A DNA stretch of 64,000 nucleotides. Source: Fibrobacter sp. UWB10. Lineage in GTDB: Bacteria > Fibrobacterota > Fibrobacteria > Fibrobacterales > Fibrobacteraceae. Below, in pieces: positions 11,884-52,980 of the stretch. The notes beneath the pieces were generated by a model, which made no database searches, was not told the origin of the DNA, and saw only the letters and a program-made list of their open reading frames with translations. Position numbers and translations under genes: made by a program. Location of the stretch: the NCBI RefSeq assembly GCF_900182935.1, contig NZ_FXUE01000003.1:124001-188000 (forward strand). The letters are read 5' to 3'. Within the stretch, counting starts at the first letter, position 1. Each line of letters starts with the position of its first letter.

Positions 11884-11935
11884 TTAGATTTCTCTAACAA
11901 ATATACAAAAAAGCCTTGAAGTTTGTCAAGGCTAA
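11884..11935 (-). promoter_or_regulatory. Iron-type promoter with two TTAG-N6-CTAA-like boxes
   Basis: Minus strand: TTGACA (11929-11924), 18 bases, TATATT (11905-11900). A perfect box TTAGAGAAATCTAA (11897-11884) follows the -10, and a one-mismatch box TTAGCCTTGACAAA (11935-11922) covers the -35. The -35 lies inside the terminator hairpin of the upstream ABC operon. Confidence 0.7.
11906..11933 (-). terminator. Terminator of the AraC-ABC operon
   Basis: Minus strand stem AGCCTTGA / TCAAGGCT (11933-11926 and 11919-11912), 6-base loop, then a run of T. It starts about 10 bases after the ABC stop codon at 11943. Confidence 0.75.
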
Positions 11936-35999: not shown

Positions 36000-36017
36000 A
36001 ATAAACCTCTAAAACTT

Positions 36018-36050
36018 AATATATCTTATTACTGCGACAAAAGATGTCGC
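36018..36050 (-). promoter_or_regulatory. WYL-type promoter site of the WYL gene itself
   Basis: Palindrome GCGACA-N5-TGTCGC (36034-36050). On the minus strand TTGTCGCAG, 8 bases, TATATT (36023-36018), 19 bases before the ATG. This suggests autoregulation. Confidence 0.65.
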
Positions 36051-36108
36051 GATGCTTCTGCTTTTGCGTTTTTTTGGTGAAAAATGTAGGACAACTTGAA
36101 TAGTAAAC

Positions 36109-36145
36109 AAAAATGCCCCTGCTCAGAGCTACTTGAGCGGGGGCA
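36109..36145 (-). terminator. Terminator hairpin inside a divergent intergenic region
   Basis: 12-base stem with one wobble (TGCCCCCGCTCA / TGAGCAGGGGCA on the minus strand), 8-base loop, then TTTTTG. No protein gene lies upstream on this strand, which implies a short non-coding transcript. Confidence 0.65.
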
Positions 36146-36240
36146 CCTTTATTCCCAAAGAGACACAAAAGAGGGAATTGGATTTTTTGATTCAACCTAG
36201 CAAGCCCGCATCTGAATGCTATGGCAACAATCAGAGTTAG
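36109..36240 (-). ncRNA. Candidate iron-regulated small RNA
   Basis: About 130 bases on the minus strand between two perfect TTAG-N6-CTAA boxes (36237-36250 and 36258-36271, 21 bases apart) and the terminator at 36145-36109. No open frame of note. The boxes are 150 or more bases from the DtxR-type gene on the other strand, so they may serve this transcript. The promoter itself is weakly defined. Confidence 0.35.
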
Positions 36241-36271
36241 ACTTGGCTAACTAAAAGTTAGATAAAACTAA
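36237..36271. promoter_or_regulatory. Two DtxR-like boxes, 21 bases apart
   Basis: TTAGACTTGGCTAA (36237-36250) and TTAGATAAAACTAA (36258-36271). Both fit TTAG-N6-CTAA exactly. Confidence 0.65.
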
Positions 36272-36323
36272 CTACAAAAACAAGGGCAAAATCGCGAAAA
36301 TAATGTAAATTTTTTTTATAATA

Positions 36324-36408
36324 TTAGTTTAATCTAAATAAATACGCTTCCTATAATAATTTTAGCCTTGCCTAATTAGATTTATTAAACTATATTAGCC
36401 GCGTCTAA
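36324..36408 (+). promoter_or_regulatory. Promoter with three DtxR-like boxes for the regulator-feo operon
   Basis: Boxes at 36324-36337, 36362-36375 (TTAGCCTTGCCTAA) and 36395-36408 (TTAGCCGCGTCTAA), all perfect. TTGCCT (36368-36373) inside the second box and TATATT (36391-36396) touching the third are 17 bases apart and form a promoter that a bound repressor would block. Confidence 0.75.
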
Positions 36409-36423
36409 ATAAGGCTGGTTAAA

Positions 36424-36861
36424 ATGGACCATACGAAACTAACTCAAAGTTTAGAAGACTACTTGGAAATGGTGCACATGTTGCGCTTGGCGAACGGGCT
36501 TGCCCGCGTCAAGGATATTGCGGCGGCTCTTGCCGTGAAAATGCCGTCGGTCGCAAAGGCCATGGTTGAACTCAAGAAGATGGGCCTTGTAAGGCAGGAA
36601 CCCTACAGCGGTGTAGAACTCACCGAAGAGGGCGAACGCGTTGCCGCCATGATTTTGAACCGTCATATTCTTCTGAAGGGATTCCTGATTAAGCTGGGCG
36701 TGTCCGAGGCGATTGCCGATAAGGATGCCTGCAGTATGGAACATATTCTTTCGGCAGAAACGCTCGGTAAGATTGAAGATTTTGTGAAACCGTCGAATGC
36801 GATTGCCTCGGCAAAAGTTTCTTCGGTGAAAAAACTAAGGGTTGTCAAAAACACAAAGTAA
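36424..36861 (+). CDS. DtxR/MntR-family metalloregulator (copy 1)
   Basis: A 145-residue regulator. The N-terminal winged HTH (SLEDYLEMVHMLRLANGLARVKDIAAALAVKMPSVAKAMVELKKMGLV) and the dimerisation/metal domain (GERVAAMILNRHILLKGFLIKLGVSEAIADKDACSMEHILS) match the DtxR family; the Cys, Glu and His residues of DACSMEH correspond to the metal site. There is no SH3-like third domain, so the length is that of MntR-type members. It heads an operon with feoA and feoB and has perfect boxes in its promoter, so it very likely represses iron uptake when Fe2+ is plentiful. Close paralogue at 49773. Confidence 0.92.
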   Translation: MDHTKLTQSLEDYLEMVHMLRLANGLARVKDIAAALAVKMPSVAKAMVELKKMGLVRQEPYSGVELTEEGERVAAMILNRHILLKGFLIKLGVSEAIADKDACSMEHILSAETLGKIEDFVKPSNAIASAKVSSVKKLRVVKNTK

Positions 36862-36909
36862 ACAGGAAGGCTCCGCTCAAGAGTTTTCCCGTTTTTATAT
36901 GAGGATGAT

Positions 36910-37194
36910 ATGAGCTGTAATTGTGGTTGCGGCGGAAAGTCGCAAACGAAAAAGTGGAGTACCGAGCCCAAGTTCTCGGAACTCAAAAAGGGCGACAAGG
37001 TGGAAATCGTCGGCTATAACGAAGGCGATTCTCGCTACAAGTCCAAGCTTCTTTCGATGGGGCTTGTGCGTGGCGTTCAGATCGAAGTCTTGCAAGCTGC
37101 CCCGCTCGGCGATCCGATCGAAGTGGCCGTGCTTTCTTATAGACTCTCGCTCCGTAAAGAAGAAGCGAACGTGCTCAAGCTGAGGAGGGTATAA
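36910..37194 (+). CDS. feoA: FeoA-like protein with Cys-rich N-terminus (copy 2)
   Basis: A 94-residue FeoA with a good GAGGA ribosome site. The FeoA core runs from FSELKKGDKVEIVGYN to EANVLKLRRV and is nearly identical to that of copy 3 at 50204. It has an extra head, MSCNCGCGGKSQ, with three cysteines in five residues that could bind iron or another soft metal; copy 3 lacks it. Cytoplasmic partner of FeoB. Its stop overlaps the feoB start by one base (TAATG). Confidence 0.9.
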   Translation: MSCNCGCGGKSQTKKWSTEPKFSELKKGDKVEIVGYNEGDSRYKSKLLSMGLVRGVQIEVLQAAPLGDPIEVAVLSYRLSLRKEEANVLKLRRV

Positions 37195-39941
37195 TGGCTG
37201 CTAGAAAACTTTTGACGATTGCTATTGCCGGTAACCCGAACTGCGGTAAGACGGCTCTCTTTAACGCCCTTACGGGTGCCCGTCAGCATGTGGGTAACTG
37301 GCCCGGCGTGACTGTCGAAAAGAAAGAAGGTTATTTTGAACTGGGTGACCGTCAGATTCGCCTGGTGGACCTTCCGGGTACTTACGCTCTGTTCGCAAAT
37401 GCCGAAGACGAACGCGCTGCTGTCGATTACTTGCTTAGCCGCGAAGCAAGCTTGATCATCAACATCGTCGATGCCACGAACCTGGAACGTAACCTGTTCC
37501 TCACGAGTCAGCTTGCCGATATGCATATCCCGATGGTGATTGCCGTCAATATGATGGATATCGCCGAAAATCGTGGAATCCAGCTGGATCTCGATGAGCT
37601 TTCTGACGTTTACGGCGTGCCGTGCATTCCGCTTTCCGCTGTGAGCGAAAAGAGCGTCACCAATTTCATTAGCCAGATGGGCCATGTGCTGGCATCTCCG
37701 ATGCCGCTCCCGAAACAGATGGTTTATGGTGACAAGATTGAAGAAACCGTTAAGGTCTTGGAACCGAAGGTGGCTCCGGTCGCAAAGCTCTTGGATGCGG
37801 ACGCTCGTTGGGTTTCGCTCATGTATTTGGGCAACCAAAACAGCTATGCCGACAAATTTGCCGAAGCTGGCGTGAAGATTAACAAGGCTGACGTTACAAA
37901 GATTCTTGGTGAAGAACCGGAATTTGCAATGGCCGAAAACCGCTATTCCATTTCGCACAATGTGGCTGGCAAGGCAATTGTCGCTGCACGCGAGAAGAAG
38001 ACCTTCTCGGATAAGCTTGATGCTGTGCTTTTGAACCGCTGGGCGGCGCTCCCGATCTTCCTTGTCATCATGTATTTGGTGTTCTGGGTAGCAGTCACTA
38101 TCGGTTCTGCATTCATTGATTTCTTTGATGTACTGTTTGGTGCAATTTTTGTGGACGGTCTCGGCTACGTGCTCACGGATGTTCTCCATGCGCCGGGCTT
38201 TGTGTCCGCTATTCTCGCCGACGGTATCGGTGCCGGTATCCAGACGGTTTCGACCTTCATTCCGGTCATCTTCTTCATGTTCCTGTGCCTTTCGTTCTTG
38301 GAAGACTCGGGTTACATGGCTCGTGCCGCTTTCGTTGCAGACCGCTTCATGAGATTCCTTGGCCTTCCGGGTCGCGCCTTCGTGCCGATGATGGTGGGCT
38401 TTGGTTGCGGCGTGCCTGGCATTATGGGCTCTCGCGTGCTGGAATCCAAGCGTGAACGTTTCCTCACCATCTTCTTGGTGCCGTTCATGAGCTGCGGCGC
38501 TCGCCTTCCTGTGTATGCGCTGTTCGCTGCTGCATTCTTTGGCAAGATGGCTGGCACGGTCGTGTTCCTGCTTTACCTTGCTGGTGTATTGTTCGCTGTT
38601 GCTTACGGTCTCTTCTTGAAGAAGTCCCTGTTCCAGGGCCAGGCCAGCAACTTTGTGATGGAACTTCCGCCGTATCACTTGCCCAAGTTCAAGTCCCTGA
38701 TGATTCACTGCTGGCAGCGCCTGCGCGACTACATCTGGCGTGCTGGTAAGGTGATTACGCTTGCCGTTGCAATACTTGGCTTCCTCAACAGCTTCGGCAT
38801 TGTGGAGAAGTCTGTGGACGAAAATGCTCCGGCCGATGAACCGGCAGGTTTTGAATTTACAGCCGGTAACGGGGATTCCGAAAATAGCTTGCTCTCTGTA
38901 ATCGGTAAGGCGATTACGCCGGTGTTCGAACCGTTCGGTGTCGAAAAGGAAAACTGGCCGGCCTCTGTGTCCTTGTTCACGGGTCTTTTGGCCAAGGAAG
39001 CCGTTATCGGTACCATGAATTCGCTGTATTCTATGGCGGGTGAAAATGCAGAAGCTCCTGCAGAAGAGCCGAAGGCAGAAGAACCTGCTGCAGAAACTCC
39101 GGCTGCTGAAGCCCCGGCTCCGGAACAGGTTGCCGCTGTTGCTGACAGTGCCGCTGCTCCTGCAGAAGCTGCCGAAGCACCTGCTGAAGAAAAGGCTGAA
39201 GAAGAAAAGGTGCTTATCGCCGGTGTAGACGAATGCCCCGCCGAAGAAGAGGAAGAAGGTGGCGCTCCCGATATCAAGGGTGCCGTACTTGAAGCTCTCG
39301 GCTCGATTCCGGCAAATCTCTCTGAAGTCATCGGCTCGCTTACCGACATTCTCGGAACCGCCGGTGAATTGGAAGGCCAGGAAGCTGCCGAACTCAAGAA
39401 AGAAACTCTCGACAAGATTACTGATGCCAAGGTGCTGACCTGCGAAGAATTTGCTGCCATCGCTACCTTCGGCGAAGAAGAAGAGGATGAAAAGACCCGC
39501 GAAGCCGTGTTCGAAAAGCTCGCTGCTGCTGGCATCACGCTCGACGAAGACGAAATGGGTGCTCTCGAAGAAGGCGACCTTTCCGAAACCGCCGACATCT
39601 ACGCTAACCTCCGCTCTTACTTCCACAATCCGGATAAGAACGGTAACCCGGTGGATGGCTTTAACTGGCAGGTGTTCGCATTCCTCATCTTTATCTTGCT
39701 CTATGTACCTTGCCTTGCTGCAATGGGTGTCGTAGCCCGTGAAATCGGCCTCGGCCTTGCTATCCTTATGGCAACGGTTCAGACGATTCTTGCTTGGGCT
39801 GTGGCTGTTCTCCTTTACCAGGTGCCGGTTGGAGGCGATACCAAGTGGATTGTTGCCGCTATCGTGGCTCTTGTGGGTACGGGAATCTTCCTCAAACTCT
39901 TCGGCATGAAGGCTAATAAGGAAAAGAGATTCGAAGACTAA
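37194..39941 (+). CDS. feoB: FeoB ferrous iron transporter with long acidic insert (copy 2)
   Basis: A 915-residue FeoB, longer than the usual 700-780. The G domain has GNPNCGKTALFN (G1), DLPGTYAL (G3) and NMMD (G4). The permease carries gate motifs GFGCGVPGIMGSR and PFMSCGARLPVY, and AKEAVIGTMNSLY. After this point, residues about 616-815 are an insert rich in Glu, Ala and Pro (repeats like PAEEPKAEEPAAE), ending just before the final helices FAFLIFILLYVPCLAAMG. E. coli FeoB has a shorter loop at the same place. Imports Fe2+ across the inner membrane. Third gene of the DtxR-feoA-feoB operon. Confidence 0.93.
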   Translation: MAARKLLTIAIAGNPNCGKTALFNALTGARQHVGNWPGVTVEKKEGYFELGDRQIRLVDLPGTYALFANAEDERAAVDYLLSREASLIINIVDATNLERNLFLTSQLADMHIPMVIAVNMMDIAENRGIQLDLDELSDVYGVPCIPLSAVSEKSVTNFISQMGHVLASPMPLPKQMVYGDKIEETVKVLEPKVAPVAKLLDADARWVSLMYLGNQNSYADKFAEAGVKINKADVTKILGEEPEFAMAENRYSISHNVAGKAIVAAREKKTFSDKLDAVLLNRWAALPIFLVIMYLVFWVAVTIGSAFIDFFDVLFGAIFVDGLGYVLTDVLHAPGFVSAILADGIGAGIQTVSTFIPVIFFMFLCLSFLEDSGYMARAAFVADRFMRFLGLPGRAFVPMMVGFGCGVPGIMGSRVLESKRERFLTIFLVPFMSCGARLPVYALFAAAFFGKMAGTVVFLLYLAGVLFAVAYGLFLKKSLFQGQASNFVMELPPYHLPKFKSLMIHCWQRLRDYIWRAGKVITLAVAILGFLNSFGIVEKSVDENAPADEPAGFEFTAGNGDSENSLLSVIGKAITPVFEPFGVEKENWPASVSLFTGLLAKEAVIGTMNSLYSMAGENAEAPAEEPKAEEPAAETPAAEAPAPEQVAAVADSAAAPAEAAEAPAEEKAEEEKVLIAGVDECPAEEEEEGGAPDIKGAVLEALGSIPANLSEVIGSLTDILGTAGELEGQEAAELKKETLDKITDAKVLTCEEFAAIATFGEEEEDEKTREAVFEKLAAAGITLDEDEMGALEEGDLSETADIYANLRSYFHNPDKNGNPVDGFNWQVFAFLIFILLYVPCLAAMGVVAREIGLGLAILMATVQTILAWAVAVLLYQVPVGGDTKWIVAAIVALVGTGIFLKLFGMKANKEKRFED

Positions 39942-39960
39942 CCTTTTAGAATCAAGAACC

Positions 39961-39999
39961 ATTAAGGGCTGGTAGGCCCAAAACCTGCCAGCCCTTAAT
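39961..39999. terminator. Strong hairpin after feoB copy 2
   Basis: 16-base arms ATTAAGGGCTGGTAGG / CCTGCCAGCCCTTAAT with one wobble and a 7-base loop, 19 bases after the stop. No long T run follows, so termination or mRNA protection are both possible. Confidence 0.6.
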
Positions 40000-40012
40000 T
40001 AAAAAGCTTGAA

Positions 40013-40026
40013 TTAGATTTGTCTAA
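40013..40026 (+). promoter_or_regulatory. DtxR-like box upstream of the porin promoter
   Basis: TTAGATTTGTCTAA, perfect, with arms extended to AATTAGA / TCTAATT. It lies 25 bases upstream of the sigma-54 promoter of the porin-like gene. Confidence 0.65.
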
Positions 40027-40051
40027 TTTGTGAAACTAAACTGAAACATCT

Positions 40052-40067
40052 TGGCACGCATTTTGCA
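40052..40067 (+). promoter_or_regulatory. Sigma-54 promoter of the porin-like gene
   Basis: TGGCACGCATTTTGCA matches the -24/-12 consensus TGGCACG-N4-TTGCW exactly, about 108 bases before the ATG. Confidence 0.85.
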
Positions 40068-40174
40068 ATAATAGCACACAGAAGGCGATAGCCAAGCGTT
40101 TTTGTAGCACTATTTGTAAAAAACCTGACGGAGTGTTACAAAAACAGAAAATAAATCCGTCAAGGGAGAGAAAA

Positions 40175-41575
40175 ATGAAGAATCGTTTGACGTCTAATCT
40201 TTTGTTCGGCCTTGCCGCCGCTTCCTTCTTTGCAGTGTCTGCATTTGCTCAGGAAGCCGCCCCTGCCGCCGAAGCCCCCGCTGCAGCCCCTGTTGCTGAA
40301 GCTCCTGCTGCAGCCCCTGCTGAAACTCAGGCCGCTCCTGCTCAGGAAGCCCCTGTCGTCGCTCCGGCACAGGAAACACCGGCTGAACAGCCTGTCGCTG
40401 CCGCTCCTGCTGAAGAAGAAAAATCCGCTGAATCTGCTCCTGCTGAAAATACAAACCCGGGCGAAGTGGCCGACGCTGCCGGTAACGCTTTCGACATGCT
40501 CAAGGCCAGCATGAGCGAAGGTACTTCTGAAGCCAAGATGGAAGTTAAGTATAATGGCGAAGTTGAATTTGACATCTACACGGGCAATGTCTTGGAAGAT
40601 GAAGACCTGAACCATTCCTATGCTTCTACCTTTGACCTGAATTTTGAAGTCAAGTTCAATGAAAAGTGGTCTGCTTTCGTGGGTCTTGAAGCCGATGGTG
40701 AAACGACGGATCCGTTTGCCATTTACAATGGTGCCTACATTCAGTATCAGCCGGCTGAATTCTTCGCCGTCAAGCTGGGTGACCTGACCTTCTCGGAAGG
40801 TGCATTTGTTGCCTACTATGACTACGATGATCCTGCTGACAATGCTGCTGGCATGAAGGAACATGATATCCGTGGTTTTGAAATTGACTTGGCTGGCTTT
40901 ATTCTTGGCTTTGGCTTTGGTCGTGGCGGTAACGACTGGGCCGACGAAGATGGTGCCAAGGTTTACGATGTCCACGCCGCTTACGAATTCGACTATGCCG
41001 GTCAGCACTTGCGTCCGTATGTGGACTACAAGAGCTTCCAGACCACTCAGCATAACGAACTCCATGCCGGTGTAGAAGCGGGCCTCTCTCTCGGTGGCTT
41101 TGGCTTCAGGGCTGTGTATGGTTTCCATGCTGATTACCTGATGGACGACGGTGATGTCGTGGAAGGTCAGGACTGGACTTCTACTGCCCACGCCTTCTTG
41201 GTTGAGCCGACTTTCGAAGTGGGTATGTTTGATATCAAGACGACTGCCTTCTACGCCCTCATCGACAGAGGTGATGCAGCCGAGGATGCTAGCGACCTTG
41301 ATAACGGCGAAATCCCGGAATACTTCTTCCTGTACGCCGAACCGGCTTTCAAGTTTGCTGAATTCATCAAGGTTGGCATTCCTGTAGAATACCACACGCA
41401 CACTTTGGATGATGATGACGATACCGCTGCTACGTTCGATGTCGGTGCCCGCGTCTACATCACTCCGGTCGAAAACCTGGAAATCACCGCTTTCGGCATG
41501 GTGGATGTTGCCGTGCAGGATAACGAAGACGATGACGCTCTGCGTTTCGGTCTTGAAACGGTGTACAGCTTCTAA
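40175..41575 (+). CDS. Porin-like outer-membrane beta-barrel protein
   Basis: A 466-residue secreted protein. Start at the ATG at 40175 behind AAGGGAGAG; an upstream GTG in frame is not convincing. Signal peptide ending SAFAQ (about residue 25), then a Pro/Ala/Glu-rich tail (repeats of PAAEAPAAAP, residues about 26-105), then a barrel domain with alternating aromatic strands (DIYTGNVL, YIQYQPAEFFAVKLGDLTF, FGLETVYSF at the C-terminus). Strongly acidic overall. Probably an outer-membrane channel; substrate unknown. It has a sigma-54 promoter plus a DtxR-like box, an unusual combination, and follows the feo operon on the same strand. Confidence 0.75.
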   Translation: MKNRLTSNLLFGLAAASFFAVSAFAQEAAPAAEAPAAAPVAEAPAAAPAETQAAPAQEAPVVAPAQETPAEQPVAAAPAEEEKSAESAPAENTNPGEVADAAGNAFDMLKASMSEGTSEAKMEVKYNGEVEFDIYTGNVLEDEDLNHSYASTFDLNFEVKFNEKWSAFVGLEADGETTDPFAIYNGAYIQYQPAEFFAVKLGDLTFSEGAFVAYYDYDDPADNAAGMKEHDIRGFEIDLAGFILGFGFGRGGNDWADEDGAKVYDVHAAYEFDYAGQHLRPYVDYKSFQTTQHNELHAGVEAGLSLGGFGFRAVYGFHADYLMDDGDVVEGQDWTSTAHAFLVEPTFEVGMFDIKTTAFYALIDRGDAAEDASDLDNGEIPEYFFLYAEPAFKFAEFIKVGIPVEYHTHTLDDDDDTAATFDVGARVYITPVENLEITAFGMVDVAVQDNEDDDALRFGLETVYSF

Positions 41576-41600
41576 TTACCTCGCATAATGCGCAAAAAGG

Positions 41601-41632
41601 GGACTGTGGCGTTTTGCCGCGGTCCTTTTTTT
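41601..41632 (+). terminator. Intrinsic terminator after the porin-like gene
   Basis: Stem GGACTGTGGC / GCCGCGGTCC with two wobble pairs, loop GTTTT, followed by seven T. Confidence 0.85.
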
Positions 41633-41653
41633 ATGTGAAGGGGAATGGCGGGC

Positions 41654-42643
41654 TTATTTCCCCTTCATACTTGCCTGGATTTTGGCGATGACTTCTTCTG
41701 GCGTCACGAAATTCAAAACGCTGAAAGCCGTCATTTCATTACCCATGTCCTTGAACGAGGCTCCAAAGTGATAAACCGTATCATCCACAAGCAAAAATCG
41801 ATCGTGAATAGTGCGCATGGTCTTCAGTTCTAAGTCGGGATATTGCTTATTGTGCATGTCCTTGGCTGCCTTAAATTCGGGAGTGATACGTGCGGAATAA
41901 ATGACAGCCTTAACATCTTTCGCACGCATTGCGGCAAATTTTAAAACCTCGAGATTTGCATATGGATCGATAAACACCACGGACCGCTTCGCGGATTTCA
42001 CCAAATCAGCAATCAGAACAAGTCCGTCAAACCGAGTTCCTGTCGCAAGGATGCCTCCTGTGGGTGTTTGGACGGCTTTGACAAAGAAATCAATATGTTT
42101 TTCAACGGTCGAAAGACGATTGTCCACATTTTCGAGTTTCGTTCCCTGGTTTTCAATTAATTGCCGTTGTTCCTGAAACTGATTGGCGATCTGCATTCCA
42201 GTCGCAACCATTCGTTGATTTACGGCATAACCTTTGAGCATGTAGTCTTTCAGGATTTTATTTGCCCACTGGCGAAAACGTGTTCCTGCAATGGACTTGA
42301 CTCGATAGCCGACGGAAATGATGACATCTAAATTATATAGGACGACTTCCGAAGATTGTGTTTTCCCTTTGATTGCGCCATGCGGAGTGGTATGTGCAAA
42401 ATTTGCACATACCACTTTGGAATCTAATTCGCCTTCATTGAACGCGTTTTTGATTTGCTTTGCAATAACGGAACGATCTCTCTCGAATAATCGTGCCATC
42501 TGTGCCTGCGTGAGACAGACCGTCTCGTTTTCAACGCGCACCTCCAAGCGGACTTCACCTTCCGGCTGGTAAAGGACGATTTCACCAGAATCCGATTTCG
42601 CAATCGGATTCAACGAATCTCCATTTTCCTTGGTTTTTCCCAT
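41654..42643 (-). CDS. RhuM-family protein with C-terminal HDR/PLD-like domain
   Basis: A 329-residue protein. The N-terminal two thirds match the RhuM (virulence protein) family: VCLTQAQMARLFERDRSVIAKQIKNAF, then VVLYNLDVIISVGYRVKS and RFRQWANKILKDYMLKGY, a DNA-related module spread by mobile elements. A coiled stretch follows, then a domain with RSVVFIDPYANLEVLK, TIHDRFLLVDDTVYHFGASFKDMGNEMT (HDR about residue 278) that resembles the end of the ORF6N protein at 30219. The start at 42643 is supported by AGGTAAGG; a longer frame reaches 42664. Possible nuclease or defence factor. Confidence 0.8.
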   Translation of the reverse strand: MGKTKENGDSLNPIAKSDSGEIVLYQPEGEVRLEVRVENETVCLTQAQMARLFERDRSVIAKQIKNAFNEGELDSKVVCANFAHTTPHGAIKGKTQSSEVVLYNLDVIISVGYRVKSIAGTRFRQWANKILKDYMLKGYAVNQRMVATGMQIANQFQEQRQLIENQGTKLENVDNRLSTVEKHIDFFVKAVQTPTGGILATGTRFDGLVLIADLVKSAKRSVVFIDPYANLEVLKFAAMRAKDVKAVIYSARITPEFKAAKDMHNKQYPDLELKTMRTIHDRFLLVDDTVYHFGASFKDMGNEMTAFSVLNFVTPEEVIAKIQASMKGK

Positions 42644-43926: not shown

Positions 43927-46900
43927 ATGATGATGCAAAAAATCAAAAAGATTGCCTTGGTTTGTGCCACATGGATTGGCGTGCTGAATGCTGCACCCGC
44001 AATTTGGGATGGTTCAGCCGATATTTCTTGGTATGAACCCGGGGCGCAAGCTTATAACCTGACCACTGCGGAACAGCTCGCAGGTCTTGCAAAGCTTGTG
44101 AATGAGGGAACATCTGATTTTGATGGTAAAACAATTACTTTAGGATTTGATATTTTCTTGAATGATACTGCAGGAATCGGAGATACTTCATGGTATAATA
44201 TTTCTCACACTGAATGGACTCCTATTGGAACTAAAAAAAATCCTTTTAGGGGAGAATTTGATGCGCTAGCAGGGAAAAATAATCGCAAAATATTCGGGTT
44301 GTACATTAAGAATGGAAATGATTATGCGGGCTTTTTTGGATACACAGAACATTTAAAGGTGAGTAACCTTGATTTAGTTGCAGGAAGTATTACTGCCCAA
44401 AATTATGTTGGAGCTGTTGCGGGATATGCGATAAACGCAATCATTACGAATGTACATAGTAAGGTGAATGTGTCAGGAGCCAATTGTGTTGGAGGCTTAG
44501 TAGGTTTCTCAACGGGAAAATTAAATGCAAGTTCTGTGGAAAGTCGTGTTTTGGGAATAGATTCTGTTGGTGGCGTTGCTGGTTATGTTGATGAAATTGA
44601 ATCTAGCGTTCACGACAAAGGATATGTTCAAGGTCGTAATTATGTTGGTGGAATCGCTGGCGCGTCTGCAGTGATATCTGGTTCCCATCACGAAGGTGGT
44701 GATGTTGTTGGCTTAGGTTCCTACATTGGAGGCGTGGTTGGACAATGTTCTTCTGTAAATAACAGCTTCGCAGAAAGTTCTGTGAGGGGTGTTTCTTATG
44801 TAGGAGGAATTGCGGGAATTTCAGAAGAGATAAAAAATGTTCATCATTGCGTGGGAAATGTAATTGGAAGTGGTCATTATGTTGGCGGAATAGCCGGCTT
44901 TAGTAATTCAATATATACTAGCTATGCAGAAGGAGATGTTATAGGAGATTCAAGTTATGTTGGTGGTGTAGTTGGATCTGCAAAGGGATTGTTAAGTACG
45001 GTTTATCATACGGGTGGTAACATAACCGGTCGCGCCTATATAGGTGGATTAGCTGGAAATACAAATCGAATACATTTGTCATATTCAGAAGGAAATGTTG
45101 TGGGCGAAGATAACTTTGTTGGTGGTCTCGCCGGCTATGCTAGAGGGACGATTGATTCGTCGCATTCAAAGGGAAATGTAAATGGAACTGAATATGTTGG
45201 CGGCTCTGTTGGTTTTTCAAAAGGTTTGTTGAATGGAGTTTATCATATTGGTGGTGACATAACTGGTCATGCCTATGTAGGAGGCTTAGTAGGAAATGCA
45301 AACCGAATACGTTCGTCATATTCAGAAGGAAATGTTGTGGGCGAAGATAACTTTGTTGGTGGTCTCGCCGGCTATGCTAGTGGAACGATTGATTCGTCAT
45401 ATTCAGAAGGAAATGTAGGTGGTATTGACTATGTTGGTGGTCTAGTTGGTTTTGCTTTAGCATCCATAACAGAATCTTATTCAAAGGGGAATGTCTCGGG
45501 ATTAAACAATTTCATAGGTGGTTTAGTTGGTCAATCGTCGGGAACAATCTTCAACTCGCATTCATTGGGGAATGTCGAGGGTGAGAATTATATAGGAGGG
45601 TTGGTTGGACATTCTTATTTCTATAGCAAAACAGACAGAGATACAATTGTTCATGTTGTGCGAAACTCATATGCAATAGGTGATATTCGAGGACAAAATT
45701 ATGTGGGAGGTCTCGTGGGTTTAGACTCTATTTACAATGGCGATTCGACGACCGTAGATACTATAACAACATTATCGTTAATAACCAAAGTGATGTATAA
45801 TTCTTATTCTAAAGGGACGGTAACGGCTGAGGGGAATTATGTTGGAGGAGTTCTTGGAAAATCAAATTATAATTATGGCGTCAAAAACTCCTTCTTGCTG
45901 ATGGAGTCAGTACATCATATGGATGGTAGTATAAATGGGATCTCCTACGTTGGAGGATTGGCTGGACAATTGACCGGATCTATAACGAATAGCTTTTCGG
46001 AAGGATCTGTGATTGGCGAATGCGATTATGTTGGCGGCTTGGTTGGATTGAATTTTTATGCTTTTCAATCAGATGGCAATGCGGTCTCAACTCATGAATC
46101 TCGAAAAATCAAAGTTTTACAGAATTCGTATGCTACGGGGGATGTATATGGTAAAAATTTTGTCGGTGGATTAGTTGGAACCGATTATTTTTATGCAGAT
46201 ACTATTCTTTATAAACAAATTTCAAATACCCCAATTCGAATAATTTATAAATCACATTTTAAAGGTAGAGTTGTTGGTAAACATGATTATGTCGGAGGAT
46301 TGTTGGGAAGGACCGATTATCCAGATGAAGAACATTATAGTATGCATATAGATTCTTCGTTTCATATAGAAGGACATATAGAAGGAATGGGATTTGTCGG
46401 TGGTGTTGCAGGATTATTGTTTGGAGAAATTGAGAATTCTTATTCTAAAGGAAATGTCTCGGGCGTAACCGATTATGTAGGCGGCGTCGTAGGATATGCT
46501 TCATATGTAGTTGATTGTTTTTCAGAGAGTGATGTGATGGGTGGAAACTATGTTGGAGGCGCCGTAGGATTTATTTCATCTAAAACAAAAAATGGGGCAG
46601 GGTATTTGCGAAATACTCATTCTTCAGGGCTAGTAGTTGGTTCCGGTGATTATGTAGGTGGAGTTGCGGGTAAAGCTCTGATTGGCAGCATTAGCCCAAT
46701 TGATTCAATCTATCATATCAATGGCGATGTAAAGGGAGCCTCGTATGTGGGTGGCCTGGTCGGTCATGCTTCGTATTTAAAAAATTCATATTCAAAAGGG
46801 AATGTGTATGGACGCGGAAATTATGTCGGAGGAATCGCGGGATATACGGGAACGATAAGAATGTCCAATTCTATTGGCGATGTTAAAGGATCTGGCGAAT

Positions 46901-49515
46901 ATGTTGGGGGTGTTGCTGGCTATGCGGTTACAAAAATTGATTCGTCTTCTCATATAGGTGGGGATATTACAGGCGAAAAACTTGTAGGAGGCTTAGCTGG
47001 ATATGCTCGGGAGGTGACGAATTCGTCGTCAGAAGGAAATGTCTTCGCTTCAGGAGATGTTGTTGGTGGCATAGCAGGAAATTCTCGAATTATAAATAAT
47101 GTTTGTCACAAACAGGGAAATGTTGTTGGTGTAAATAATGTGGGAGGGATTGTTGGAAAAGGTGGTAGTATTGAAAATTCCTTTTTTATTGGAAATGCTT
47201 TTGGAAAAGATTCTGTCGGTGGCGTTGCTGGATCTGCGGAAAGTGATATTTTTAAATCCTACTTTATTGGCGATTCTGTAATAGGCATTTACCAAGTGGG
47301 AGGTCTTGTCGGAGTCGTGAATGGTCGAGTAGATTCTTCCTATTCGACTGCAAATGTCAAAGGTGACGATAACGTTGGCGGTTTGATTGGAAGTTCCTAT
47401 GGAAATATCTCTTGTTCGTATGCAACGGGTAATGTGATTGGCGATGTTGACAATTCTAGTGCCGGTAACGATAACTTGGGTGGTCTTGTCGGGTATGCTT
47501 ATAAAGGCTCTATCTCAAAATCATTGGCTATAGGTGATGTTAGCGGAACGACAAAATTAGGGGGACTTGTCGGTCGATTTGATGGAACAAGTATTTCGCA
47601 GAGTTATGCTCAGGGAAATGTAACTGGTTCATATTATGGAAATCCAGCCGATGAAGTGGGAAACTTCTATATCGGTGGCTTGATTGGCTATGGAAAGGGG
47701 TCTGTTTCCGAAACATATGTAAGTGGCTCGGTAAAAGGCATTGAAGATGGTCCCGTTTATACAGGTTGTATTGTAGGCTATGTAAATGGCTCTATGGAAA
47801 TAGCGGATTCCTATTTTGATAGCGAAAAATGTAATCTTACGTTTGAAGGCAAGACGGGAATCGCCACAATTTCTAATTCTCCAGCACAAACGACTGCTGC
47901 AATGCAATCATCGTCTACTTATGGAAATTGGGACTTTATAGATACATGGAGAATTATCGGAGAGTCTTACCCAAGATTATCATGGTTCGTAGGAACTCTT
48001 GCCGAGGCGATTGTGGAAACAGCTTCGCTTAAAGATTTTGTTTATGACGGCAAAGAAAAAAAGCCTGCTGTGAAGTCTATAACATTGTACGGAACAGCAT
48101 TATATGAAGGAACCGATTATACGGTTTCATACCAAAATAATGTAAATGCTGGAACTGCTATAATAAATATTTGTGGAATTGGGACGTATTCAGGGTGTAA
48201 ACCTGTTTCTTTTGAGATTTCTCCAGTAAACGTAGCTGTTTCTATCGCTGCAATAGATAATCAGGTTTATAATGGAGATTCTATAACGCCAAATATTTCA
48301 GTGCTAGTTGCCGATACCGTGATAAACCCGATAGATTATCGATTATTTTACACTAATAACATTAACGCGGGGAAGGGCTCTGTTCAGGCCGTTCTTACGG
48401 GTAATTACTCTGGTTCCGCAAAGGCTGATTTTATTATTGAAAAGGCCCCTTCGACAATTTTAGAGTTACCGACTGCAAAGGATGTCTATTTCGGTCAAAC
48501 ATTGGCAGATGCGATAATTGACGGCGGCGATGCCAATGTGGATGGCTCTTTTATCTGGTCTGAATCCAATGTGATTCCGGATGTAGTAAATAAAGGCTAT
48601 GAAATTACATTCGTTCCTGCGGATGCACAAAATCACCTTACTGCAACTGCAATAATTCCTTTAACAGTTAAGAGAAATGTGATTGTATTTACATATGGCA
48701 AAGATACTTTACAGGTAGATACATTGCTATATGGGGATCTACCTCAATTTGATGGAGATTTGCCAAAGAAAGAATCCGCTCAATATGTATATACCTTCAA
48801 AGGGTGGTCTCCCGAAATTGTAAAGGTTGCTGGTAGCGCTTCTTATAAAGCAGTCTATGATAGCACAATTCGCAAATACACCATTAGTTTTTATAGCGAA
48901 GATAGTCTTTTGCAGTCTTCTGAAATTGAATATGGAAAAATGCCGGTTTTGAAGACATCTAATCCTAAAAAAGCTATGAGTACGGCTTATACATACCAAT
49001 TCAAGGGATGGTTCCCAACGCTTGTTTCCGTTGCAGGAGATGCTGAATACAAGGCTGTATTCGACAGTACAATTAGAATGTATCAGATTTCTTTTGTGAA
49101 TGGCAGAGATACCCTGCAAAAAGATTCTATTGCTTATGGAGATTCGCCAAAATACACTGGCAAAACACCAACAAAGGCTTCGACAAAGAATTACAGCTAT
49201 GAATTTACAGGTTGGTCCCCTAAGATAGAGAAAGTTGTTGGCGAGGCTGCCTATCATGCGGTATTCGATAGTACGAAGTTGGCCGGAATAATGGATAATC
49301 AATTTGCTAATTTGGAAATGTCTGTAAGCGTAATTTCTCGCAATATTCAGATTTCAACTGCTCCGGTAGGCTCTGTTTATGCAATCTTTGATGTGCAGGG
49401 GAGTGTGTTGAAGAACGGCTATGTTGAATCTGCCAATTTCAATATTGCCGTACCGCAAGCAGGTAATTATATGATACGAATCGGAAATCATGTTCAGAGA
49501 ATTAGCGTAAAATAA
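43927..49515 (+). CDS. Giant GLUG-repeat surface protein, probable type IX cargo
   Basis: A 1862-residue secreted protein with a signal peptide ending LNAAPA. From about residue 150 to 1310 it consists of some 38-39 GLUG repeats (YVGGLVGYA...SYSEGNVxG), forming a long beta-solenoid. Then two MBG/bacterial Ig-like units (about 1366-1580: FVYDGKEKKPAVKS, NQVYNGDSITPNIS), three InlB/Flg_new-type repeats (YTISFYSEDSL...FKGW, about 1586-1785) and a C-terminal 75 residues (ISTAPVGSVYAIFDVQG...YMIRIGNHVQRISVK) like type IX secretion sorting domains. Role: adhesin or surface fibre, possibly for fibre or host contact. A 65-base identical stretch marks a recent internal duplication. Confidence 0.85.
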   Translation: MMMQKIKKIALVCATWIGVLNAAPAIWDGSADISWYEPGAQAYNLTTAEQLAGLAKLVNEGTSDFDGKTITLGFDIFLNDTAGIGDTSWYNISHTEWTPIGTKKNPFRGEFDALAGKNNRKIFGLYIKNGNDYAGFFGYTEHLKVSNLDLVAGSITAQNYVGAVAGYAINAIITNVHSKVNVSGANCVGGLVGFSTGKLNASSVESRVLGIDSVGGVAGYVDEIESSVHDKGYVQGRNYVGGIAGASAVISGSHHEGGDVVGLGSYIGGVVGQCSSVNNSFAESSVRGVSYVGGIAGISEEIKNVHHCVGNVIGSGHYVGGIAGFSNSIYTSYAEGDVIGDSSYVGGVVGSAKGLLSTVYHTGGNITGRAYIGGLAGNTNRIHLSYSEGNVVGEDNFVGGLAGYARGTIDSSHSKGNVNGTEYVGGSVGFSKGLLNGVYHIGGDITGHAYVGGLVGNANRIRSSYSEGNVVGEDNFVGGLAGYASGTIDSSYSEGNVGGIDYVGGLVGFALASITESYSKGNVSGLNNFIGGLVGQSSGTIFNSHSLGNVEGENYIGGLVGHSYFYSKTDRDTIVHVVRNSYAIGDIRGQNYVGGLVGLDSIYNGDSTTVDTITTLSLITKVMYNSYSKGTVTAEGNYVGGVLGKSNYNYGVKNSFLLMESVHHMDGSINGISYVGGLAGQLTGSITNSFSEGSVIGECDYVGGLVGLNFYAFQSDGNAVSTHESRKIKVLQNSYATGDVYGKNFVGGLVGTDYFYADTILYKQISNTPIRIIYKSHFKGRVVGKHDYVGGLLGRTDYPDEEHYSMHIDSSFHIEGHIEGMGFVGGVAGLLFGEIENSYSKGNVSGVTDYVGGVVGYASYVVDCFSESDVMGGNYVGGAVGFISSKTKNGAGYLRNTHSSGLVVGSGDYVGGVAGKALIGSISPIDSIYHINGDVKGASYVGGLVGHASYLKNSYSKGNVYGRGNYVGGIAGYTGTIRMSNSIGDVKGSGEYVGGVAGYAVTKIDSSSHIGGDITGEKLVGGLAGYAREVTNSSSEGNVFASGDVVGGIAGNSRIINNVCHKQGNVVGVNNVGGIVGKGGSIENSFFIGNAFGKDSVGGVAGSAESDIFKSYFIGDSVIGIYQVGGLVGVVNGRVDSSYSTANVKGDDNVGGLIGSSYGNISCSYATGNVIGDVDNSSAGNDNLGGLVGYAYKGSISKSLAIGDVSGTTKLGGLVGRFDGTSISQSYAQGNVTGSYYGNPADEVGNFYIGGLIGYGKGSVSETYVSGSVKGIEDGPVYTGCIVGYVNGSMEIADSYFDSEKCNLTFEGKTGIATISNSPAQTTAAMQSSSTYGNWDFIDTWRIIGESYPRLSWFVGTLAEAIVETASLKDFVYDGKEKKPAVKSITLYGTALYEGTDYTVSYQNNVNAGTAIINICGIGTYSGCKPVSFEISPVNVAVSIAAIDNQVYNGDSITPNISVLVADTVINPIDYRLFYTNNINAGKGSVQAVLTGNYSGSAKADFIIEKAPSTILELPTAKDVYFGQTLADAIIDGGDANVDGSFIWSESNVIPDVVNKGYEITFVPADAQNHLTATAIIPLTVKRNVIVFTYGKDTLQVDTLLYGDLPQFDGDLPKKESAQYVYTFKGWSPEIVKVAGSASYKAVYDSTIRKYTISFYSEDSLLQSSEIEYGKMPVLKTSNPKKAMSTAYTYQFKGWFPTLVSVAGDAEYKAVFDSTIRMYQISFVNGRDTLQKDSIAYGDSPKYTGKTPTKASTKNYSYEFTGWSPKIEKVVGEAAYHAVFDSTKLAGIMDNQFANLEMSVSVISRNIQISTAPVGSVYAIFDVQGSVLKNGYVESANFNIAVPQAGNYMIRIGNHVQRISVK
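45079..45380 (+). repeat. Identical 65-base repeat inside the GLUG gene
   Basis: 45079-45143 and 45316-45380 are identical over 65 bases, 237 bases apart, while most GLUG repeats differ at the DNA level. This points to a recent duplication or gene conversion of a two-repeat unit. Confidence 0.8.
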
Positions 49516-50203: not shown

Positions 50204-50443
50204 ATGAATAACGAACCGAAGTTTTCGGAACTAAAAAAAGGCGACAAGGCCGAAATTATTGGATACAACACGGGTGATTCTCAATACAAGTCCAAACTTT
50301 TGTCGATGGGGCTTGTGCGTGGCGTGGTGCTGCAGGTTTTGCAGGTGGCTCCGCTCGGCGACCCGGTCGAGGTGAGCGTGCTTTCGTACAGGCTCTCGCT
50401 CCGCAAACAAGAAGCCAATGTGCTCAAGTTGAGGAGAGTCTGA
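50204..50443 (+). CDS. feoA: FeoA-like protein (copy 3)
   Basis: A 79-residue FeoA, FSELKKGDKAEIIGYNTGDSQ through EANVLKLRRV, nearly identical in its core to copy 2 but without the cysteine-rich head. Follows the regulator by 11 bases and overlaps feoB by one base (TGATG). Cytoplasmic accessory of FeoB. Confidence 0.9.
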   Translation: MNNEPKFSELKKGDKAEIIGYNTGDSQYKSKLLSMGLVRGVVLQVLQVAPLGDPVEVSVLSYRLSLRKQEANVLKLRRV

Positions 50444-52794
50444 TGCCTATCGAGAAAGAAGTTTTCACGATTGCGATTGCAGGCAATCCGAACTGCGGAA
50501 AGACGGCGCTCTTTAACTCGCTTACCGGCTCGAACCAGATTGTGGGCAACTGGCCTGGCGTGACTGTCGAAAAGAAGGAAGGCCAGTTCAAGCTCGACAA
50601 CCACACGATTCGCGTGGTGGACTTGCCGGGTATTTACGCGCTGTTTGCGAATTCTGAAGACGAACGCGCCGCTCTCGATTACTTGCTCAAGGGCGAGGCG
50701 GACCTGGTCGTGAACATTCTAGATGCTACGAACCTGGAACGCAACCTGTTCCTCACGAGCCAGCTGATGGAAAAGGGCGTGCCGATGGTCTTGGCGGTGA
50801 ACATGATGGATATCGCGGCGAGTCGCGGCATCCATGTGGACCTGCACAAGCTCGAAGAAATTCTCGGCGTGACGGCGATTGGCCTTACGGCGGTTTCGCC
50901 CAAGAGCTGCGAAGGATTCGTGAACGACTTGCACAAGTTGCTGCATAACAGCCGCGAGCTTCCGCTCCCGAAGGCGGTCAAGCATTCCGAAGTTCTGGAA
51001 AAGCTGATTGAAGAAATTGCGGTGCCGCTCAAGCCCGTAGCCGACAAGCTTGGCGCAAGCCCGCGCTGGACGGCGGTGCAGTACCTGGAGCATAGCGGGC
51101 GAGTGCAGGAACTTGCCGACGAACTCGGTGTCGAAATCCCGCACGACAAGATTGAAGAAGACTTGGGCGAAGAGGTGGAATTTGCACTGGCCGATTCCCG
51201 CTACTCCTATGCCCGCGACATCGCGAAGGCCGTCATCCGCGACAATACTACCAAGCGCACGCGGACCGACAAGCTCGACAAACTATTTCTGAACCGTATT
51301 CTAGGAATACCGCTTTTCCTTATTGCCATGTATCTGGTGTTCTGGTTTGCGGTGAAGGTCGGCAGCGCGTTCATCGATTTCTTCGACATCCTGTTCGGCG
51401 GAATTTTCGTGGACGGAATGACGGAACTTCTGACGAAGATTGGTGCGCCGGGCGTTGTCGTGGCGCTGTTGGCGAACGGCATCGGTACGGGTATCCAGAC
51501 GGTATCGACGTTCATACCTGTCATTTTCTTCATGTTCCTTTGCCTTTCGTTCCTCGAGGATTCTGGCTACATGTCGCGTGCGGCGTTTGTGGCGGATCGC
51601 TTTATGCGGTTCCTCGGGCTCCCGGGAAAGGCTTTCGTGCCGATGATCGTTGGCTTTGGCTGTTCGGTGCCGGCGCTCATGGGCACGCGTACGCTCGAAA
51701 ACAAGCGCGAAAGGTTCCTTACTTTGTTCTTGGTGCCGTTCATGAGTTGTGGGGCGCGCCTTCCGGTGTATGCGCTATTTGGTGCGGCTTTCTTCGGCGA
51801 AAGCGCAGGCACGCTCGTGTTCGGGATTTACCTGACGGGCATCGTGATTGCGCTGATTTACGGCCTGCTCTTGCGCCATACGGTTTTCATGGGCAAGGAA
51901 TCGACGTTCATCATGGAACTGCCGCCTTACCATTTGCCCAAGGCGCGTAACCTTTTCCGTCACGCATGGCTCCGCCTCAAGGAATTCGTTTTCCGCGCGG
52001 GCAAGGTCGTGCTCATTATGGTGACGGTGCTCGGCTTTATGGGCTCCGTCGGCACGGACGGAAGTTTCGGCAACGACAACAACGAAAAGTCGGTGCTGAG
52101 CGCCGTGGGAACGGTGATTACGCCGGTGTTCGAACCCTTCGGTGTTGAACGCGACAACTGGCCTGCATCTGTCGCGCTCTTTACGGGGCTCTTCGCGAAA
52201 GAGGCGATTGTCGGAACGCTCAATTCGCTGTATGCCATCGAGGGCACGGGCGACGCTGACGCTGCTAACGCTGCCGAAAAAGCGGAGGAGGCGGGCGCGC
52301 TTGCTGCTGCCGACGCGGCCCCGGAAGAAACTGCCGCGGACGAAGGCTTTAGTCTGAAATCGACGGTGAAAGAAGCTCTCGTGAGTGTCCCGGCGAACCT
52401 GGTAGAAGTCTTTACCTCGATTGCAAACCCGCTGGGCGTCAAAGATGCCATCGATGAATCCGAAAGTGCCGGGAACGAAGGGGCGTACAAGACGATGCAG
52501 GCGCATTTCAATCTCGGGCGTTTTCAGGTGCTGGCCTACCTGCTGTTCATCTTGCTCTATGTGCCGTGCCTTGCCGCCATGGGAACCGCCTTCCGCGAAC
52601 TCGGGCGCTTCTACGGAACGCTCATGATGGTTTTCCAGACGGTTATCGGCTGGAGTCTCTCGGTACTGTTCTTCCAGGTGACCTGCGGGCATTCTACCGC
52701 ATGGATTTTCACCTCGGTGGTACTCCTCGCCGGTGTGGTCGTGAGCCTCGTGCTGATTGGCCGTGACCAGCGCAAGAAGAAAGTGTTCGAATAA
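50443..52794 (+). CDS. feoB: FeoB ferrous iron transporter (copy 3)
   Basis: A 783-residue FeoB. G domain: GNPNCGKTALFNSLTG, DLPGIYAL, NMMD. Permease: GFGCSVPALMGTR and PFMSCGARLPVY, AKEAIVGTLNSLY. The loop after this (about residues 596-688) has an Ala/Glu-rich part and then FSLKSTVKEALVSVPANLVEVF, shorter than the 200-residue insert of copy 2 and close to the E. coli length. Its coding sequence is more GC-rich than that of copy 2 while the proteins are alike, so they diverged some time ago. Imports Fe2+; end of the third feo operon. Confidence 0.93.
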   Translation: MPIEKEVFTIAIAGNPNCGKTALFNSLTGSNQIVGNWPGVTVEKKEGQFKLDNHTIRVVDLPGIYALFANSEDERAALDYLLKGEADLVVNILDATNLERNLFLTSQLMEKGVPMVLAVNMMDIAASRGIHVDLHKLEEILGVTAIGLTAVSPKSCEGFVNDLHKLLHNSRELPLPKAVKHSEVLEKLIEEIAVPLKPVADKLGASPRWTAVQYLEHSGRVQELADELGVEIPHDKIEEDLGEEVEFALADSRYSYARDIAKAVIRDNTTKRTRTDKLDKLFLNRILGIPLFLIAMYLVFWFAVKVGSAFIDFFDILFGGIFVDGMTELLTKIGAPGVVVALLANGIGTGIQTVSTFIPVIFFMFLCLSFLEDSGYMSRAAFVADRFMRFLGLPGKAFVPMIVGFGCSVPALMGTRTLENKRERFLTLFLVPFMSCGARLPVYALFGAAFFGESAGTLVFGIYLTGIVIALIYGLLLRHTVFMGKESTFIMELPPYHLPKARNLFRHAWLRLKEFVFRAGKVVLIMVTVLGFMGSVGTDGSFGNDNNEKSVLSAVGTVITPVFEPFGVERDNWPASVALFTGLFAKEAIVGTLNSLYAIEGTGDADAANAAEKAEEAGALAAADAAPEETAADEGFSLKSTVKEALVSVPANLVEVFTSIANPLGVKDAIDESESAGNEGAYKTMQAHFNLGRFQVLAYLLFILLYVPCLAAMGTAFRELGRFYGTLMMVFQTVIGWSLSVLFFQVTCGHSTAWIFTSVVLLAGVVVSLVLIGRDQRKKKVFE

Positions 52795-52836
52795 CGCCCG
52801 TTCTCGCGCAATTTGCGTCTGATTTACGGGCGTTTA
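52793..52836 (+). terminator. Terminator-like hairpin after feoB copy 3
   Basis: AACGCCCGT / ACGGGCGTT (52793-52801 and 52826-52834) enclosing an inner CGCAATTTGCG hairpin, then TTT. It overlaps the stop codon. Confidence 0.5.
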
Positions 52837-52964
52837 CGAAATTTGTAAAAATGCTGTAATTCTTTACAATTTTTGAAATCGAAAATTTAGCTGAATTTTA
52901 GGATTCGGCTTTCGTTTTACATTTTTGACCGCTTTTTCAATAATTGACGGGTGTTTTGTCTGTT

Positions 52965-52980
52965 TGGCACGGATTTTGCA
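52965..52980 (+). promoter_or_regulatory. Sigma-54 promoter of gltBD
   Basis: TGGCACGGATTTTGCA fits TGGCACG-N4-TTGCW exactly, 37 bases before the gltB ATG. It implies RpoN control and a nitrogen-responsive activator. Confidence 0.88.

What the first reader, a model, noticed from the sequence alone, without database searches (positions are those of the whole stretch)
40013..40067. Porin gene under both sigma-54 and an iron box
A perfect TGGCACG-N4-TTGCA promoter lies 25 bases after a perfect DtxR-like box. Combining RpoN and a DtxR-type regulator on one outer-membrane protein is unusual and links it to both nitrogen-type signals and iron.
Basis: partly seen in the sequence, partly recalled or inferred. 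Interest (0 to 1): 0.5.

Follow-up and report, generated by a model that had tools for sequence, protein, structure and literature searches.

The report
Porin with metal and nitrogen switches
In the fibre-digesting bacterium Fibrobacter, an outer-membrane pore gene next to iron-uptake genes carries two separate conserved switches, one of the metal-sensing kind and one of the nitrogen-type (sigma-54) kind, and the start of its message holds a further conserved element that may be a control site on the unusual, downstream side.

Summary
It is not chance. A conserved leader of about 110 nt below the promoter was found at 52 places in 50 of 80 genomes of the genus (Fibrobacter). All 52 have the sigma-54 site (15-16 of 16 positions) at a nearly fixed offset, feoB upstream and the porin downstream; 51 have the box. 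Box-to-promoter spacing runs from 8 to 70 bases, and some relatives have one module without the other, so these are separable modules, not one composite promoter. The box belongs with the dtxR-feo set (8 of 21 genomic sites lie in this 13.5 kb). The leader matches no Rfam family. It holds two sites 31 bp apart resembling the tandem enhancer that I found upstream of gltB, glnN, dapF and purF, but downstream of the promoter, and it can pair into a pseudoknot abutting the ribosome-binding site. Both sites score well in only 29 of 52 places, and covariation does not prove the fold. Nitrogen-type control thus has sequence support; the metal link is by association. Nothing here is expression data.

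The parts
36424..36861 (+). DtxR/MntR-family regulator gene
   Evidence: Pfam Fe_dep_repress and Fe_dep_repr_C over cut-off; best NCBIfam MntR, below cut-off
36237..36408 (.). five TTAG-N6-CTAA boxes before dtxR-feoA-feoB (36237, 36258, 36324, 36362, 36395)
36910..37194 (+). feoA
   Evidence: Pfam FeoA
37194..39941 (+). feoB
   Evidence: TIGR00437 over cut-off
39962..39998 (+). hairpin after feoB, terminator-like (no T run)
   Evidence: sequence; a hairpin with other letters stands there in some relatives
40013..40026 (.). DtxR-type box TTAGATTTGTCTAA
   Evidence: present at 51 of 52 leader-bearing places
40052..40067 (+). sigma-54 -24/-12 site
   Evidence: 15-16 of 16 positions at 52 of 52 places
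40067..40177 (+). conserved leader, from the last base of the promoter to the start codon; transcript start about 40078 (inferred from the usual distance to -12)
   Evidence: covariance model, 52 strong places in 50 of 80 genus genomes
40103..40121 (.). possible activator site 1 (5.2 bits)
   Evidence: matrix built from gltB sites
40134..40152 (.). possible activator site 2 (11.8 bits), 31 bp from site 1
40099..40110 (+). S1 5' arm
   Evidence: pairs with 40133-40144
40133..40144 (+). S1 3' arm
40126..40132 (+). S2 5' arm
   Evidence: pairs with 40156-40162; one double change
40156..40162 (+). S2 3' arm, directly before the ribosome-binding site
40163..40168 (+). ribosome-binding site AGGGAG
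   Evidence: sequence
40175..41575 (+). porin gene, 466 residues
49687..49734 (.). two boxes (49687, 49721) before a second dtxR-family gene
50443..52794 (+). second feoB
   Evidence: over cut-off
52832..52880 (.). tandem activator sites before gltB (52832 and 52862, 22.3 and 18.5 bits)
   Evidence: part of the set the matrix was built from
52965..52980 (+). sigma-54 site of gltB

Best explanation
The porin gene behind dtxR-feoA-feoB has two stacked, separable inputs. Module 1 is a DtxR/MntR-type operator of the kind set before both dtxR-feo clusters; with metal in plenty the repressor should shut an ordinary promoter at or near the box (inferred). Module 2 is a sigma-54 promoter that fires when an activator of the nitrogen-type set is active. 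In most of the genus that activator's sites would lie not upstream but within the first 75 or so bases of the transcript, as a pair 31 bp apart like the one upstream of gltB. The same letters are kept in the RNA, where they can pair into a hairpin or pseudoknot that ends at the ribosome-binding site and may also tune translation or mRNA stability. The product is a porin that would widen outer-membrane entry for small solutes, perhaps towards FeoB, when metal or nitrogen is short. Shown by sequence: the elements, their conservation, separability, near-fixed offset, porin fold. Inferred: the proteins that bind, direction of control, start sites, signals, RNA folding.
For: 52 of 52 leaders have the sigma-54 site, feoB upstream and the porin downstream; 51 have the box, at spacings from 8 to 70. 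Box without promoter or leader in L045 and L077-L081; promoter (13-14 of 16) without box or leader in L054, L158, L159. Boxes cluster at the feo genes. A matrix from gltB sites alone finds pairs at glnN (29 bp), dapF and purF (31 bp each), genes not used to build it, and in the porin leader (31 bp; 5.2 and 11.8 bits); in the 64-kb window this and gltB are the only pairs of 4 bits or more at 27-34 bp. L054 and L159 have a pair upstream of the porin promoter (8.0 and 13.9 bits, 29 bp). Exact dyads: 25 in the genome against 6 in the control, 3 within 200 bp upstream of sigma-54 sites against 0.08 expected.
Against: No expression or binding data. In the leader both sites reach 4 bits in only 29 of 52 places (one reaches 5 in 48), and site 2 has lost its right half in many, so the downstream-enhancer step is not secure; matched sites upstream of gltB score 15.8-23.4. 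A site starting about 50 bases past -24 is close to the polymerase footprint. No promoter for module 1 was identified. The short box is not specific by itself: of 8 sites outside the feo cluster that I looked at (of 13), 4 lie inside ORFs.
Confidence: 0.5

Rival explanations
1. The leader works only as RNA: a pseudoknot (S1 and S2) that masks or frees the ribosome-binding site in answer to a metabolite, metal or protein, a riboswitch-like element made by the sigma-54 promoter. The likeness to activator sites is a by-product of its TGTNACA words.
For: S1 core pairs in 99.3% and S2 in 89.3% of cells of 40 distinct leaders; slid versions pair in 36-49% overall. One double change in S2 (L124, L130) and a U-A, U-G, C-G series in S1. 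Six leaders fold with z of -1.7 to -4.1. S2 spacing varies while pairing stays, odd for a DNA site. Fibro-purF RNA begins 11 bases after the -12 element of purF's sigma-54 site, so a structured leader on a sigma-54 transcript has a precedent in this genome.
Against: On 40 leaders covariation does not exceed column shuffles (score reached by 451 of 500; paired cells by 62 of 500); on the first 20 it did better (10 of 500 and 1 of 500). The structure was read off these sequences, which favours it over slid controls. The dyad spacing match to gltB, dapF and purF would be coincidence.
Confidence: 0.3
2. Box and sigma-54 site form one composite promoter, the metal regulator acting directly on the sigma-54 polymerase.
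For: They lie 25 bases apart here and at 17 of the 51 box-bearing leader places.
Against: Spacing runs from 8 to 70 bases; some relatives have one module without the other.
Confidence: 0.1
3. Only the box matters, or only the sigma-54 site; the other is a relic or chance.
For: Single motif matches are weak evidence; with 2 mismatches the -24/-12 pattern shows no excess in the window. L109 has the promoter and leader with a decayed box (7 of 8).
Against: Sigma-54 site at 52 of 52 and box at 51 of 52 leader-bearing places, while the sequence between them does not align between groups.
Confidence: 0.07

Closest known systems
Sigma-54 promoters with tandem NtrC-type enhancers (glnA of E. coli; recalled)
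   Same: -24/-12 site, RpoN and activators in the genome; at gltB, glnN, dapF and purF paired dyads 29-31 bp apart, 70-145 bp upstream
   Different: At the porin the only candidate pair lies downstream of the promoter, in the leader; sites there are weaker
Downstream enhancer of rocG in Bacillus subtilis (passages of PMC4941409)
   Same: A sigma-54 activator site on the downstream side of the promoter
   Different: rocG's site lies 1.5 kb downstream; here the pair would sit in the first 75 or so bases of the transcript
DtxR/MntR operators
   Same: Inverted TTAG...CTAA box repeated before dtxR-family and feo genes
   Different: Here the metal-type operator is paired with a sigma-54 promoter on a porin; the metal is unknown
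Fibro-purF RNA (Rfam RF02974)
   Same: Leader RNA of a sigma-54-type transcript in this genome
   Different: No sequence or structure match; Rfam finds nothing relevant at the porin leader
LamB/ScrY/OprD and Campylobacter MOMP porins
   Same: Barrel fold: LamB Z 23.4, 3.4 A over 305 residues; MOMP Z 22.1, 3.5 A over 303
   Different: 7-18% identity in the listed rows; no Pfam or NCBIfam family for the window protein; Ala/Pro/Glu-rich linker before the barrel

Membership tests
Sigma-54-dependent promoter | -24 GG and -12 GC elements in the consensus TGGCACG-N4-TTGCA | tested here: met
   Exact; kept at 15-16 of 16 positions in 52 of 52 places
Sigma-54-dependent promoter | RpoN and AAA+ activators in the genome | tested here: met
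   1 RpoN match, 10 activator-domain matches of which 7 strong
Sigma-54-dependent promoter | RpoN-dependent transcript start about 12 bases after -12 | not testable with these tools
   Needs 5'-end mapping
Sigma-54 enhancer | Activator sites near the promoter | tested here: inconclusive
   Pair in the leader at the spacing of gltB, but both sites reach 4 bits in 29 of 52 places only
DtxR/MntR operator | Inverted repeat box shared by regulator and transporter promoters | tested here: met
   8 of 21 genomic sites in the feo cluster
DtxR/MntR operator | Metal-dependent binding of the regulator | not testable with these tools
   Needs EMSA with the two regulators
Structured cis-regulatory RNA | Covariation beyond chance | tested here: inconclusive
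   Pairs kept (95.4% of cells; slid controls 36-49%), but shuffles not exceeded on 40 leaders; better on 20
Structured cis-regulatory RNA | Match to an Rfam family | tested here: not met
   Three matches in 36000-41700, all far below gathering scores and none in the leader
Outer-membrane porin | Signal peptide and beta-barrel with porin fold | tested here: met
   Model pLDDT 90.4, about 18 strands by my count; best solved matches are porins; signal peptide judged by eye

The most novel reading that the evidence does not exclude
One conserved stretch of about 65 bases in the porin's leader does two jobs: as DNA it is a tandem sigma-54 enhancer sitting just downstream of its own promoter, and as RNA the same letters fold into a pseudoknot that gates the ribosome-binding site, with a separate metal operator above. 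A pore gene would then integrate metal, nitrogen and an RNA-level signal.
Probability: 0.25. Interest if true: 0.75.

Novelty: new variant of a known kind. Interest (0 to 1): 0.5.

Why it matters
My searches of one held library listed no study of sigma-54, DtxR or nitrogen control in Fibrobacter. The work gives a testable activator motif and a target set (gltB, glnN, dapF, purF, probably glnK and urtA) for a fibre digester of the rumen, shows a porin under two separable nutrient-type inputs, and offers a conserved leader in which a downstream enhancer and RNA folding can be told apart by simple mutations.

Tried and rejected
Composite promoter: rejected as the main reading, because spacing varies from 8 to 70 bases and modules separate. 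Chance: rejected. Known RNA family at the porin: none. Heat-shock-type control of the porin by the same sites: the clpB, dnaK and hsp20 regions have no gltB-type dyad (best scores negative), so they seem to answer to another activator. Perfect short palindromes before ten sigma-54 genes gave no common motif; the motif came from the gltB footprint. The activator is not identified: the NifA-like protein encoded after dapF-dapL (L227:3355-4881) scores 462.5 against a NifA cut-off of 528.85 and is only a candidate. A porin profile found no solved relative by sequence at E up to 1. An 18-residue piece of the P-II protein was too short to find relatives.

Dropped before counts: the two weak model matches L140 and L141 (E 0.0154 and 0.0588; no promoter, no porin); L059 and L060 from the first leader alignment, since their -24/-12 look-alikes are not at a leader. 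For the gltB matrix I used 15 loci of the 30 fetched: not used were L189 and L190 (my offset did not fall on the start codon), L192, L195, L197 and L201 (incomplete start or contig end) and L202-L210 (outside the order). One of the 15, L191, is of another genus. The 29 sites are those of the 30 best two per locus that match 9 or 10 of 10 positions. The cut-offs of the random-sequence test were set after seeing the sites.

Full report
Setting. The window is C3:124001-188000 of a 3.48-Mb genome; among named records the porin's closest relatives are Fibrobacter succinogenes and Fibrobacter sp. MAGs, so I call the genus Fibrobacter. Gene order: dtxR (36424), feoA (36910), feoB (37194-39941), box, -24/-12 site, porin (40175-41575); further on two boxes (49687, 49721) before a second dtxR-family gene, a second feoB (50443-52794), and gltB (53018) with its own exact -24/-12 site at 52965.

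Observation. The motif is as described: box 40013-40026, promoter 40052-40067, 25 bases between. Genome-wide the exact promoter pattern occurs 12 times against 3 for the reversed control. Two of the 12 lie inside genes; the other ten precede genes for ClpB, DnaK, an Hsp20 protein, a sigma-70-family factor, a P-II protein, type III glutamine synthetase (glnN), GltB, UrtA, a 152-residue ORF next to an activator gene (its start codon only 5 bases after -12, so doubtful), and the porin. TTAG-N6-CTAA occurs 21 times, 8 of them within 13.5 kb around the two feo clusters and the porin, and once more in the window at 11884. Of the 13 sites outside the cluster I looked at 8: 4 are inside ORFs, so the short form alone is not specific.

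Conservation. The porin has matches in 40 of 60 related genomes. Of the 30 loci first fetched, 23 have feoB upstream, 22 an exact box and 22 a promoter of 15-16 of 16 at a leader. Below the promoter about 110 bases are conserved up to the start codon. A covariance model from 20 sequences found 52 strong places in 50 of 80 genomes of the genus (two further weak matches are false) and, over 167 genomes of the phylum, matches in one of 40 genera only (stricter filters). At all 52 places the promoter scores 16 of 16 (47) or 15 of 16 (5) and abuts the leader (offset -1 to +2), feoB lies upstream, and a porin (53-100% identical where aligned) follows. Box: 51 of 52, at 8 (1 place), 18-25 (28), 43 (4) or 68-70 (18) bases. 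L045 and L077-L081 have the box but neither promoter nor leader; L054, L158 and L159 have a promoter (13-14 of 16) with neither box nor leader. So the modules come and go independently.

Nitrogen-type sites. The DNA before gltB in 15 loci shows dyads TTTNCA-N5-TGNAAA in pairs: 30 bp apart in 11 loci, 29 in one, 84-85 in three. A matrix from 29 of these sites was tried on genes not used to build it. It finds pairs at glnN (19.2 and 18.1 bits, 29 bp), dapF (20.5 and 21.4, 31 bp) and purF (19.3 and 11.8, 31 bp), weaker sites at glnK (10.8) and urtA (10.5), 6.3 at the sigma-factor gene, and only negative scores at clpB, dnaK, hsp20 and the L002 ORF. The exact dyad occurs 25 times in the genome against 6 in the control, three times within 200 bp upstream of a -24/-12 site with at most 1 mismatch, where 0.08 are expected. 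dapF and dapL are followed by a NifA-like activator gene, a candidate for the protein that binds.

At the porin no site of positive score lies in the 250 bases upstream. The two best are in the leader, 31 bp apart, 5.2 and 11.8 bits. In the 64-kb window this pair and gltB's are the only ones of 4 bits or more 27-34 bp apart; of 3000 random sequences of local composition none had a comparable pair, and 1.5% had a single site as good (cut-offs set after the fact). Over the 52 places the spacing is 31 (48) or 30 (4). At least one site reaches 5 bits in 48, but both reach 4 in only 29, since site 2 has often lost its right half. In L054 and L159 a pair (8.0 and 13.9 bits, 29 bp) sits upstream, the usual side; L158 keeps sites of 8.7 and 6.2 bits there at another spacing. 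Sigma-54 activators can work from downstream, as at rocG of Bacillus subtilis (passages of PMC4941409), so a downstream pair is possible, but I know of none this close.

RNA. S1 (40099-40110 with 40133-40144) and S2 (40126-40132 with 40156-40162) cross each other, so together they would make a pseudoknot whose last strand abuts the ribosome-binding site at 40163. In 40 distinct leaders 99.3% of S1-core and 89.3% of S2 cells pair, against 36-49% overall in slid controls; yet the covariation score is reached by 451 of 500 column shuffles and paired cells by 62 of 500. On the first 20 sequences, with a longer S1, these were 10 and 1 of 500. Support rests on one double change in S2 (L124, L130), a U-A, U-G, C-G series in S1 and fold energies (z -1.7 to -4.1 in six leaders). 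No Rfam family matches the leader. A parallel: at purF, whose sigma-54 site has one mismatch, Fibro-purF RNA (RF02974, E 1.4e-24) begins 11 bases after the -12 element.

Product. The barrel part (residues 113-466) models at pLDDT 90.4 with about 18 strands by my count. Foldseek ranks Campylobacter MOMP first (7.5e-12); VIA-align 2 puts LamB (Z 23.4), ScrY (22.6) and MOMP (22.1) near the top. The window protein reaches no Pfam or NCBIfam family (10 of 47 relatives touch Porin_O_P, best E 0.0014). The substrate is unknown; a path for metal towards FeoB is inference from gene order.

Literature. PMC12316311 (passages) predicts sigma-54 control of chaperone genes in Planctomycetota and Bacteroidota; its main text does not hold the stem Fibrobact. 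Searches for Fibrobacter with sigma-54, rpoN, riboswitch, DtxR, ferrous iron plus porin, and NtrC plus nitrogen assimilation listed no paper on this locus (listings only); nor did feoB, porin and sigma54 together in the 10 of 14 titles shown. A search for Fibro-purF returned none.

Verdict. Observation confirmed; interpretation partly supported. The porin has separable metal-type and sigma-54 modules, and sequence evidence ties the latter to the nitrogen set. The conserved leader is the unexpected part; whether it is a downstream enhancer, an RNA switch or both is open.

Noticed in passing
L001, L005, L010, L012 (promoter at locus position 1501 on its own strand): Exact sigma-54 sites precede clpB, dnaK, an Hsp20 gene and a sigma-70-family gene: heat-shock genes under sigma-54 in Fibrobacter, as PMC12316311 predicts for other phyla.
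   Followed up: partly
L228:2202-2276 (-): Fibro-purF RNA starts 11 bases after the -12 element of a sigma-54 site with tandem activator sites upstream, so this known RNA motif appears to be the leader of a sigma-54 transcript.
   Followed up: partly
L227:1087-4881: dapF-dapL followed by a NifA-like activator gene behind the strongest tandem activator sites seen (20.5 and 21.4 bits).
   Followed up: partly
L061, L064-L068, between box and leader: In one group a short ORF (about 34 codons, with a ribosome-binding site) lies below the box and overlaps the sigma-54 site; possibly a leader peptide.
   Followed up: no
37194-39941: This FeoB (915 residues) carries a long Ala/Glu/Pro-rich insert in its C-terminal half.
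   Followed up: no
11884-11897: A further TTAG-N6-CTAA box 38 bases before a 188-residue ORF on the minus strand without NCBIfam match.
   Followed up: no
L025: A box lies 108 bases before an ORF that looks like NuoB (named by eye from its sequence).
   Followed up: no
43927-49515: A 1862-residue protein with GLUG motifs between the two feo clusters.
   Followed up: no
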